Positions 31,767 to 51,512 of a DNA stretch of 64,000 nucleotides are shown in pieces. A program made the position numbers and the translations under genes. Below the pieces are notes generated by a model that worked only from the letters and a program-made list of their open reading frames with translations, did not search any database and was not told the DNA's origin. The stretch is taken from positions 1 through 64,000 of the forward strand of contig JASAMV010005752.1 of NCBI GenBank assembly GCA_030248065.1. The letters run 5' to 3'. The DNA comes from Rhynchonema sp. JSB1_4 (lineage: Eukaryota > Nematoda > Chromadorea > Monhysterida > Xyalidae). Each line of letters starts with the position of its first letter. The first letter of the stretch is position 1.

Positions 31767-31774
31767 TATAAAAG
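31767..31774 (+). promoter_or_regulatory. TATA box for PC4-like gene
   Basis: TATAAAAG lies 50 bp before the ATG at 31824. It decides the start: the longer open frame beginning at 31734 lies partly upstream of the TATA box. Confidence 0.6.
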
Positions 31775-31823
31775 CAGGGGCGAAAATGGCTTTGGAGTTA
31801 TTTTCAAGTTTTCAAAATCGAAA

Positions 31824-32352
31824 ATGGGAAAAGTGAAGCAAGCGGAACTTGACGCCAGTCAAGAATTCAGTCAAATAGCCAAAGAGATTCTGGAAAATGA
31901 GGCCGACAACCGACGCCAACAAGAGCAACGACAGCAAGCAAGCATTCCCGAATACACAACCGGAAAATTATTTGCACTGTCGAATCGATGCAAAGTTCGT
32001 TGGCTTGCGAACAAAAATTCGGTCACGGTAAGAAGATTGTTTGATGGATAAAATTTCCATTTTTTGGGTAAAATTTTATTGTTGCAGCTTAGAATCGGGG
32101 CAACAAAGTTCGGTCGTACCGCAAGTGGAGAGTCTATAGAAATTATGGACCCGACTTTATCGTGCATCCTGAATTGTACTGAGTGGGCTACATTGTTGCA
32201 ATCTCTCGATCAGATCAACGGACTGTACAAAGAGGTTGTAGAAGCGGAAGAGAAGCGTCAACAACAGGTAAAAACTATGGATGCTTGAGACAGGATCATT
32301 CCTGAACTTTAAACAATGTGTCAGGCACAACATGTGGACAGAGATGAAGATT
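31824..32352 (+). CDS. PC4/Sub1-like ssDNA-binding protein, spliced
   Basis: Exon 1 (31824-32028) encodes a charged N-terminus (MGKVKQAELDASQEF, Gln/Arg-rich helix) and then GKLFALSNRCKVRWLANKNS. A GTAAGA donor and TTGCAG acceptor remove about 60 bp. Exon 2 (from 32088) continues with LRIGATKFGRTASGES, PTLSCILNCTEWATLLQSL and a final helix. That order (beta strands, R-x-Y/F-like strand, PT-x-x-GI-x-L, EW-x-x-L helix) resembles the PC4 fold that binds melted DNA. A third short exon appears to end at 32352. The product is about 135 residues, close to human PC4 (127). Next to the DNA polymerase gene, it could serve replication or transcription. By pattern only. Confidence 0.45.
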
Positions 32353-32950
32353 GAGCGCCAGCCAAGAAGTTCAAGCCACCTACATGGCAGCAGTTGGCAA
32401 AAAGTTCTAAATAGGTAATGGATCACTCTTACCAGAAAGACAAAAGAATATATCTGGCAGGAATGATACATTACAGATGCGTCAACAACGTTGAGCAGTC
32501 GTATCTCGAAATCGGCTACAGCACAGTAAGCTCACTAAAACTATCACCAAGAAAATCTTAATAATGTGATGGCTTTAATGAGTTTACAGGTTCACGTGAA
32601 CTGAGTTGACAGCAACCTGAAGAACTGGTAAGTCTTTTTCAAACCCACCTTCAACTTAGAATATTGTTGCGCAGTAAAAAATGGCCTACAGGCGTGCACC
32701 GGATTTTGGTGATCGAAGAAACGAAATGAGCGAAACGTAGAATGAAATGTGAGAATTCCTTTTCAACCATGTGAAAGTAAAACAATAAAAAATGCAAGAA
32801 CAAAACTTGCAGGAACCGACGTGGCTATCTTCGACCTGAACACGATCATAATGATTATTCTGATTATAATATGATGTGTTTTCTTGTTCTTGTGTGTGTA
32901 CTGAACCTAGACAATGACCATACAGGTTCTGTACTTATTGTTACACTGTT
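32353..32950. other. Intergenic region before the polymerase gene
   Basis: About 600 bp with no long open frame. It must hold the polymerase promoter; no clear TATA box is seen close to either candidate ATG (32954, 32981). Confidence 0.5.
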
Positions 32951-32953
32951 AAG

Positions 32954-49959: not shown

Positions 49960-49988
<29 letters not shown>
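49909..49988. repeat. (CATA)n microsatellite
   Basis: About 20 units with one ACAC change, broken on the right by the MITE and continued for three units at 50346-50360. Confidence 0.95.
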
Positions 49989-49991
<3 letters not shown>

Positions 49992-50345
49992 GTCCAGCCA
50001 CGCACTCATGAGACGACATTTTTGAAATTGGTTTGTGCGGATCCAACAATGTTCCGGTTCCACGTATTTCGGAAATGAAAGAAAGAGAAACGCATGTATT
50101 TTTTAAAAACACGCTCTCCCCTTCGGTGCGTAAATTCCCTTTTGACTCCCAAAGCATTTGTGTGTTGAACGACGTTGCTGTTCGCGTAAGCACGCAACAA
50201 ATTGAGGTCAGCCAGCTGGAAGTTGTCATCATGTCTCTCATCACGATCTCTTTCTTTTGTTTGCGAAAACCCGTGTAACCGGTGCATTTTTGAATCGGGC
50301 CAGGTAGGCTTTAAAAAAGTCGTCTCATGAGCCGGTGGCTGGACT
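49989..50345. mobile_element. MITE in the CATA microsatellite
   Basis: Ends TAGTCCAGCCAC...CTCATGAGACGAC are inverted repeats of about 28 bp with two or three mismatches. TA flanks each end inside the CATA run. It is 357 bp with no transposase ORF, so a Tc1/mariner-type MITE. Near-copies of TACCGTAACCTGAT flank it at about 49793 and 50442, outside the microsatellite. Confidence 0.7.
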
Positions 50346-50620
50346 ATACATACATACATACTGCATCCATTTGCGTCACAATGAATTCTCAAAACACTGC
50401 GTTCACGTTTACTACATTTCGTTCATGAAGTCCTCCATTTACCGTAACCTGATGCGATTAGACATTTTAGTAACCTGCAAGTAACACATGTAAAACATGC
50501 TGCACCTGAGATTTCTATTCGCATACCCCTTTTGAATTCAGAAGTATTTTAGTGTAGCCCATTTTGCAAAATATAATTGTGAGGTGTGTAAATAATAAAC
50601 TCTCAGGCGCAGGTACATTA

Positions 50621-51512
50621 CACGGTGGAAAATTCCGCACTAGCGATGTCATACAATAGTATTTGTTTCGATGACCTATTTACGAGCACTTTCAGTTCTG
50701 GGACGTAGTAACAGCGTTGAATGTTTCCGTAGCTTGACGAAACGATTGGTTCGATACATACTCCTTTGTGCCACGTCCATTCATTGGTGATATTCAGGGG
50801 TAATTCTGAAGAAAATATTTAACCTTAAACTGTTGTAGTTGACGCATGTACCTCCGTAAAATGAGTTAGGTCTTGTGGGCGTCATACGTACAGTAACCCT
50901 TGGGCGAAAATAATTCTGAGAAGCTTTCCAGAGAATGCAACATCTAGGTAGTCTCGTCGACTACATTAATATTAGCCATTTTTCTACGTCTTTTCAGACG
51001 GGAAGCTTACCAGTCGGACACACCCCTTTCGCTGCACCGTTCTCAATCTGAGAATTGGGTGGATTGTTGTGAACTTGCGCCTCAAGTTTGATTTCAGCTA
51101 GTCGCGATTTTTCGCACGTGTTCAGTTGTCGCCCGCAAAAATAGTTTCCAGCGTAAGTGATCACGTCAATCGACTCGGGTGCCATGTATGGTCTCAAGAT
51201 CTTTGTCTCAGGCGGTGTTATCCCTTCGAGGTACAATTCCCTCAGGACATTGCTCGGCTCGTACAAGAACACACGTTTCTGCTCAACGCACAGGAAAACC
51301 TGAACAGAAACAAGTTTAGTGTAAGTAAAGAAACAATTAAAAAAGTAGCTAACCATCAAATGCGGGTCGTATATTGTATGTACGGTATCAGCACGAGTTC
51401 CGATGTATAGATTTTTTATGTAGTTATAATTTAGGTATATTATGGCTGGCACCAAACCGTCAACAGTATCCAAAAATTGCAGGTCGCAATTCATCTGCAA
51501 CAGTCTGTTCAT
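50621..51512 (-). CDS. Unrecognised spliced protein
   Basis: Exon 1 (51512 to about 51353) reads MNRLLQMNCDLQFLDTVDG. A 52-bp intron (GTTAGC to GTTCAG) follows, and exon 2 (about 51300-51012) includes FLCVEQKRVFLYEPSNVL and YAGNYFCGRQL and ends at a GTAAGC donor. A last exon (about 50815-50621) reads PLNITNEWTWHKGV ... QRCYYVPELKVLV and stops at 50621. An exon between 50990 and 50820 is possible. It is beta-rich with several Cys and no membrane span. No family is recognised. Confidence 0.45.

What the first reader, a model, noticed from the sequence alone, without database searches (positions are those of the whole stretch)
31767..51512. Complete, intron-rich Polinton-like element with all hallmark genes
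Protein-primed polymerase, packaging ATPase, adenain-like protease, major capsid, penton-like, core-like and integrase genes all sit in about 20 kb with few or no breaks, so this could encode a virion. Most are split by 49-70-bp introns with animal splice signals, unusual for Polintons, which are mostly intron-poor. Intron load suggests long nuclear residence and expression in the host.
Basis: partly seen in the sequence, partly recalled or inferred. Interest (0 to 1): 0.9.

Follow-up and report, generated by a model that had tools for sequence, protein, structure and literature searches.

The report
Polinton-like virus packed with introns
A eukaryote genome of unknown species carries a family of virus-like Polinton elements whose genes are cut by dozens of tiny introns that differ between copies, which suggests that the replicating virus lineage itself kept gaining introns.

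Summary
The window holds one copy of a diverse family of Polinton-like elements (ATPase matches on 18 contigs of this genome), collinear with sister copies C2615 and C598. A sister-like terminus lies at 20867, about 11 kb left of the finding, adding a BTB/POZ gene and a possible propeller gene. A LINE interrupts the copy, no right inverted repeat was found, and one polymerase splice acceptor is lost: not complete. Two sisters have terminal repeats and 5-bp target duplications. Integrase, PolB and penton are supported; protease and ATPase rest on motifs; major capsid is inferred. Of 30 introns defined, 26 are 49-73 nt. Long host residence does not explain them: proteins are under purifying selection with synonymous sites saturated, yet at least six introns differ between window and C2615, and one polymerase intron is absent from four of four close sisters. 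Introns were probably gained while the lineage replicated. Polymerase begins at a splice acceptor at the preceding gene's stop codon, in phase 1 in 8 of 8 copies (two by eye only), recalling adenovirus E2B. No RNA data; host unidentified.

The parts
20867..20900 (+). probable left terminus of the element, AGTAGTAAGAGGAGAGTC
   Evidence: 16 of 18 bases match the C2615 terminus AGTAGTAGTAGGAGAGTC, whose copy has both ends and a target duplication; no duplication can be checked for the window
21961..24009 (-). BTB/POZ gene, at least 8 exon blocks
   Evidence: BTB Pfam 8.1e-6 in 23018-23266 and 0.011 in 22807-23010; collinear blocks in C2615, parts in C598 and C1128
23976..24905 (-). 310-aa ORF, possibly a WD40-like beta-propeller
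   Evidence: 48-49% in C2615, 41% in C598 and C1128; only weak PDB profile hits, to SEC31 and RACK1, E 0.096-0.68
25296..30731 (+). LINE inserted in the element (not part of it): 1811-aa ORF with Ulp1-type peptidase, APE endonuclease and reverse transcriptase
   Evidence: Pfam; the flanking genes lie 1.1 kb apart in C2615 and 6.9 kb apart here
31824..32285 (+). conserved small gene P31, 2 exons, intron 32028-32087
   Evidence: C2615, C598, C1128; intron absent in C2615 and C598, present in C1128
32964..34036 (+). gene A (terminal-protein candidate by position only), intron 33197-33247, stop 34034-34036
   Evidence: hits in 8 other copies; alpha/beta model, best of five pLDDT 78, the others 49-63
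34038..39200 (+). family-B DNA polymerase gene, 15 exon blocks, 14 introns
   Evidence: exonuclease and A/B/C motifs read by eye
39194..39643 (-). conserved ORF of unknown role
   Evidence: hits in 9 contigs other than C3534
39598..40315 (-). P-loop packaging-ATPase candidate, intron 40200-40257
   Evidence: Walker A GRPRSGK, Walker B IFDD, 12-row alignment; intron also in C2615 and C2483
40517..40725 (-). small protein with a hydrophobic stretch, first exon; intron 40348-40516
   Evidence: C2615, C598, C2483; hydrophobicity read by eye
40852..41292 (-). ORF with a signal-peptide-like start
   Evidence: 51% in C2615; signal read by eye
41120..41723 (+). adenain-like cysteine protease candidate, 2 exons
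   Evidence: aligned His, Asp, Gln, Cys in 5 of 5 rows; intron in C2615 and C2483
41686..44620 (-). major capsid candidate, 7 exon blocks
   Evidence: blocks in three close copies (C2615, C598, C2483; none found in C1128) and five distant ones; identity inferred, no profile hit
44685..45053 (-). core-like protein with a Lys/Arg-rich tail
   Evidence: part conserved in C2615, E 2.3e-5
45043..45948 (-). penton protein, single exon
45885..46880 (-). rve integrase, single exon
   Evidence: Pfam 9.8e-9; DDE residues aligned in the rows that cover them; retroviral integrases
46961..47269 (-). conserved ORF in two blocks
   Evidence: C2615, C598
47274..48930 (+). spliced membrane-protein candidate: signal-like start, Ser/Thr-rich part, hydrophobic stretch; intron 47456-47519
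   Evidence: blocks in C2615 and C598, first exon in 7 copies; topology read by eye
48978..49313 (-). last well-conserved ORF before the variable right arm
   Evidence: C2615 4.5e-12, C598 4.6e-5; weaker C2615 matches follow at 49593-49703 and 52710-52856

Best explanation
An integrated, partly damaged copy of a Polinton-like (polintovirus-related) dsDNA element. Shown: gene order shared with sister copies; integrase; PolB; penton fold; terminal repeats and 5-bp target duplications in two sisters; short GT-AG introns in most genes, several present in one copy and absent at the same codon in others. Inferred: the element enters the nucleus, is transcribed by host Pol II and spliced by the host spliceosome, replicates by protein priming, packages DNA with its ATPase, builds a jelly-roll capsid, and inserts with the integrase. 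Also inferred: most introns that differ between copies were gained while the lineage replicated, and polymerase is made by joining an unidentified upstream phase-1 donor to an acceptor at the stop codon of gene A, so that gene A and polymerase are alternative products of one region, as pTP and Pol are in adenovirus E2B (recalled).
For: Collinearity with C2615 and C598 over window 21970-49211, LINE apart. C598: 160-bp repeats at 99.4%, termini AGTAGT, duplication GTGCC. C2615: termini AGTAGT at 53992 and 82465, duplication ATACA, inside a 149-bp satellite. Shared splice sites 19 of 24 against a control mean of 4.4. Presence/absence: polymerase intron 37614-37664 is 51 nt here and 0, -1, 1, 0 nt in four of four close copies; introns at 35678 and 36735 are filled only here and in C2615; capsid intron 42128-42183 is empty in the three sisters compared (1, 1 and -13 nt; C1128 not comparable). 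Purifying selection in 9 of 10 blocks. The 204-nt intron at 38061 matches nothing else in the genome. Gene A stop and polymerase acceptor: AG overlaps the stop in 7 of 8 copies and ends 6 nt past it in C2615; the exon starts in phase 1 in 8 of 8; the polymerase frame is out of register with gene A in 5 of 8, so read-through cannot explain it there (read by hand, and in C4140 and C1313 the exon start itself was recognised only by eye). The gene A segment before the stop is a beta-strand in the best model.
Against: No transcript was examined. The upstream polymerase donor was not found; a scan for ATG-N-GT donors found one in the window and none in four sisters. The window copy shows no right terminal repeat and lacks one acceptor AG. 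ATPase, protease and capsid have no significant profile hits. Intron polarity was judged by counting, without a tree. Distant copies do not all agree: by hand, C4140 leaves about 65 nt at 37793 and C4924 about 121 nt at 35064, so these may be filled there.
Confidence: 0.75

Rival explanations
1. Long endogenous residence: an ordinary intronless Polinton settled in the host and its genes gained introns as host genes do.
For: Introns look like ordinary short GT-AG introns; the copy carries damage and a LINE. Introns private to one copy could be late gains in the host.
Against: Introns are shared at homologous codons by copies at unrelated sites; proteins are under selection while synonymous sites are saturated; C598 looks young by its repeats.
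Confidence: 0.1
2. Intron loss: the ancestor was more intron-rich and copies lost introns precisely, for example by recombination with cDNA.
For: Absences are exact at the DNA level; some introns are missing from a single copy (35064 in C2483, 38456 in C598); two distant copies may hold introns at shared sites (C4140 at 37793, C4924 at 35064; by hand).
Against: An intron found only in the window would need several separate losses; HSP coordinates leave no room in C1313 for the introns at 34621 and 37793, nor in C2812 for 34621, which all five close copies share (by hand).
Confidence: 0.2
3. Gene A and polymerase are one protein; the segment before the conserved stop is a retained intron.
For: A GTATAAGT donor 51 nt upstream in the window.
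Against: No conserved donor seen by eye in the other four close copies; the segment is recognisable as protein in 9 of 9 copies and forms a beta-strand in the best model.
Confidence: 0.2

Closest known systems
Polinton/Maverick (polintovirus)
   Same: PolB, rve integrase, penton, protease and ATPase candidates, terminal repeats in sister copies, gene content (PMC6431247, passages)
   Different: Dozens of short introns; 5-bp rather than 6-bp target duplications (6 bp is recalled, from no call); sisters of 27.7 and 28.5 kb against the typical 15-25 kb given there; BTB and possible propeller genes; no relatives of ATPase, penton or integrase in 5.8 billion proteins nor of ATPase or integrase in viral contigs
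Adintovirus
   Same: Adenovirus-like virion genes with PolB and integrase
   Different: Defined by an OTU-like PolB N-terminus and an integrase chromodomain (PMC11071296, passages); neither was seen here
Adenovirus E2B unit (pTP and Pol)
   Same: A gene just upstream of polymerase, with polymerase reached by splicing (comparison recalled, from no call)
   Different: Gene A has no detectable relation to pTP; no shared leader was found; integrating element
Mavirus
   Same: Penton fold
   Different: Intron-dense; mavirus gene content was not compared

Membership tests
Polinton/Maverick | rve integrase | tested here: met
Polinton/Maverick | family-B polymerase | tested here: met
   on the C2615 homologue; the window ORF alone 0.011
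Polinton/Maverick | protein priming | not testable with these tools
   no biochemical data
Polinton/Maverick | penton-type minor capsid | tested here: met
Polinton/Maverick | double jelly-roll major capsid | tested here: inconclusive
   no profile hit; not modelled
Polinton/Maverick | adenain-like protease | tested here: inconclusive
   catalytic residues aligned; PDB profile best hit SENP5 at E 0.44
Polinton/Maverick | FtsK/A32-type packaging ATPase | tested here: inconclusive
   Walker A and B; no significant profile hit
Polinton/Maverick | terminal inverted repeats | tested here: inconclusive
   present in C598 and C2615; right repeat not found in the window
Polinton/Maverick | 6-bp target duplication (recalled) | tested here: not met
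   5 bp in both sister copies tested, GTGCC and ATACA; not testable for the window copy
Adintovirus | integrase chromodomain | tested here: inconclusive
   Pfam listed only rve
Adintovirus | OTU-like PolB N-terminus | tested here: inconclusive

The most novel reading that the evidence does not exclude
A lineage of integrating dsDNA viruses of a eukaryote host gains spliceosomal introns at high rate during its own replication cycle, giving virus genomes with thirty or more introns, most of about 55 nt, and uses splicing as a switch between a terminal-protein-like gene and the polymerase whose acceptor sits at the first gene's stop codon.
Probability: 0.5. Interest if true: 0.87.

Novelty: new variant of a known kind. 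Interest (0 to 1): 0.74.

Why it matters
Recent intron gain is hard to catch. Here related elements of about 28 kb, inside one genome, show exact presence and absence of short introns in conserved viral genes, so the source of new introns can be tested directly. It would also show that a Polinton-type replicon depends on the host spliceosome for most of its genes, and it gives a possible parallel to adenovirus E2B, bearing on how adenoviruses and Polintons are related.

Tried and rejected

Rows dropped: alignment A3 leaves out C1313 (1 stop); A4 leaves out C598 (2 stops); A2 leaves out a second C1313 match (L044) but has C1136 and two C1128 rows; A6 leaves out two short rows; A11 has 7 of the 40 integrase matches. 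Copies studied: L025-L044 come from 9 of the 18 contigs with ATPase matches, and L011 from a tenth.

Full report
WHAT IS THERE. The window is part of contig C3534 of a 204-Mb assembly of 5747 contigs. Matches to the ATPase exon lie on 18 contigs (23 matches), to the integrase at 40 places, to the first polymerase exon at 11. Search of window ORFs against fetched pieces of nine contigs shows two collinear sister copies, C2615 and C598, parts of C1128 and C2483, and more distant C5671, C4924, C4140, C2812 and C1313. In the blocks aligned, proteins of the four close copies are 40-70% identical to the window's.

BOUNDS. The sisters define the element. C598 has 160-bp inverted repeats, 99.4% alike, beginning AGTAGT and flanked by GTGCC on both sides: 27.7 kb. 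C2615 runs from 53992 to 82465 (28.5 kb), begins AGTAGT at both ends, is flanked by ATACA on both sides and sits in a 149-bp satellite array. The window shows a similar terminus at 20867, 16 of 18 bases. No right terminus was found up to 64 kb; the rest of the contig, to 77214, was not searched. The last well-conserved ORF shared with the sisters ends at 49313; weaker C2615 matches lie at 49593-49703 and 52710-52856. The right arm is variable, and its ORF 50997-51530 has no second copy in the genome. The stretches 20363-21061 and 21268-21646, which include the left terminus, are repeated within 11947-13017 at 99.9 and 100%, by duplication or by assembly error. A LINE, ORF 25296-30731, separates genes that lie 1.1 kb apart in C2615.

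INTRONS. Thirty intervals were defined by hand, by comparing window and C2615 DNA at block ends; 26 are 49-73 nt and four are longer. For two of the 30, the protease and the first capsid intron, the donor used does not begin with GT; the displays suggest a GT a few bases upstream. One is of GC-AG type, inside the DTDS codons. The control gives 19 of 24 against a mean of 4.4. In the matrix, six of the 14 polymerase introns (34621, 35818, 36564, 37483, 37793, 38622) are filled in all five close copies; 35678 and 36735 only in the window and C2615; 37614 only in the window; 35064 (5 nt) and 37262 (0 nt) are empty in C2483; 38456 is empty in C598. DNA displays show exact absence in C2615 for 36953, 37614, 42594 and 42128 and for the P31 intron at 32028, and a different capsid position near 43081. 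The 204-nt insertion at 38061 is absent from C2615, C598 and C2483. For introns at 34621, 35064 and 37793, HSP coordinates leave no room in C1313, nor in C2812 for 34621; against this, C4140 leaves about 65 nt at 37793 and C4924 about 121 nt at 35064 (all by hand).

WHEN WERE THEY GAINED. In 9 of 10 coding blocks compared between window and C2615, pN is 0.14-0.33 and pS 0.75-0.93, too saturated for a dS; one short BTB exon gave a ratio of 0.47. The copies thus diverged as replicating, selected lineages. Introns at shared codons arose along those lineages. Introns private to one copy arose along its lineage or after its last insertion, and a late gain in the host cannot be excluded for any single one.

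GENE A AND POLYMERASE. Gene A ends in a segment recognisable in 9 of 9 copies and a stop. In 7 of 8 copies with polymerase downstream, the AG that opens the polymerase exon overlaps that stop; in C2615 it ends 6 nt beyond. The polymerase exon starts in phase 1 in all 8, while its frame differs from that of gene A in 5 of 8 (read by hand; in C4140 and C1313 the start of the exon is too weak for tblastn and was recognised by eye). In the close copies the conserved polymerase sequence starts within a few codons of the acceptor, with no in-frame ATG there. A second acceptor-like CAG or TAG lies 1-6 nt before the gene A start in 5 of 5 close copies. This fits alternative joining of an upstream exon to gene A or to polymerase. 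The donor is unknown.

STATE OF THIS COPY. Every exon block used has a stop-free frame. Damage seen: no AG at the acceptor near 38511, the LINE, no right repeat. The finding's 'could encode a virion' is therefore doubtful for this copy and untested for the family.

LITERATURE. Searches for Polinton, Maverick or adintovirus with intron or splicing terms listed no title about an intron-dense Polinton; listings with titles and starts of abstracts were seen, and passages of PMC11071296, PMC12220804, PMC11244446, PMC6431247 and PMC3671162. This does not show that none is in print; most subscription papers are not held.

Noticed in passing
window about 40740-40815 (-); C2615 between 68288 and 68450: tRNA-like, Pol III-like stretch with A box TAGCTTAATTGG, B-box-like GGTTCAACAC and a GTCCG/CGGAC stem, similar in C2615 at the same place; could be a VA-RNA-like gene or a tRNA remnant. 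No Rfam or ARAGORN call.
   Followed up: partly
window 25296-30731: LINE whose single ORF joins a Ulp1/C48 peptidase domain to APE endonuclease and reverse transcriptase.
   Followed up: no
window 11164-13792 and 20363-21646: Left junction of the element duplicated at 99.9-100% identity, flanked by a 620-nt perfect inverted repeat; recent duplication or assembly error.
   Followed up: partly
window 54974-57083: Repeats with four tRNA-Gly(TCC) genes, three of them in 391-bp tandem units, and two 62-nt tRNA matches; a 97-98% similar repeat lies about 1.7 kb outside the C598 element.
   Followed up: no
window 43136-44387, 35818-36454; C2615 intron near 70.5-71.8 kb: The longest introns hold minisatellites; a similar motif (TTGTTTTTCC..ATTATACC) appears in different introns of different copies.
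   Followed up: no
window 24922-25170: Stretch of long A and C homopolymers that looks like poor-quality assembly.
   Followed up: no
C598 8304-9257 and 10994-11551 (in L028): Variable arm of the C598 element holds ORFs of 146-186 aa of unknown kind, with no match seen in the window.
   Followed up: no
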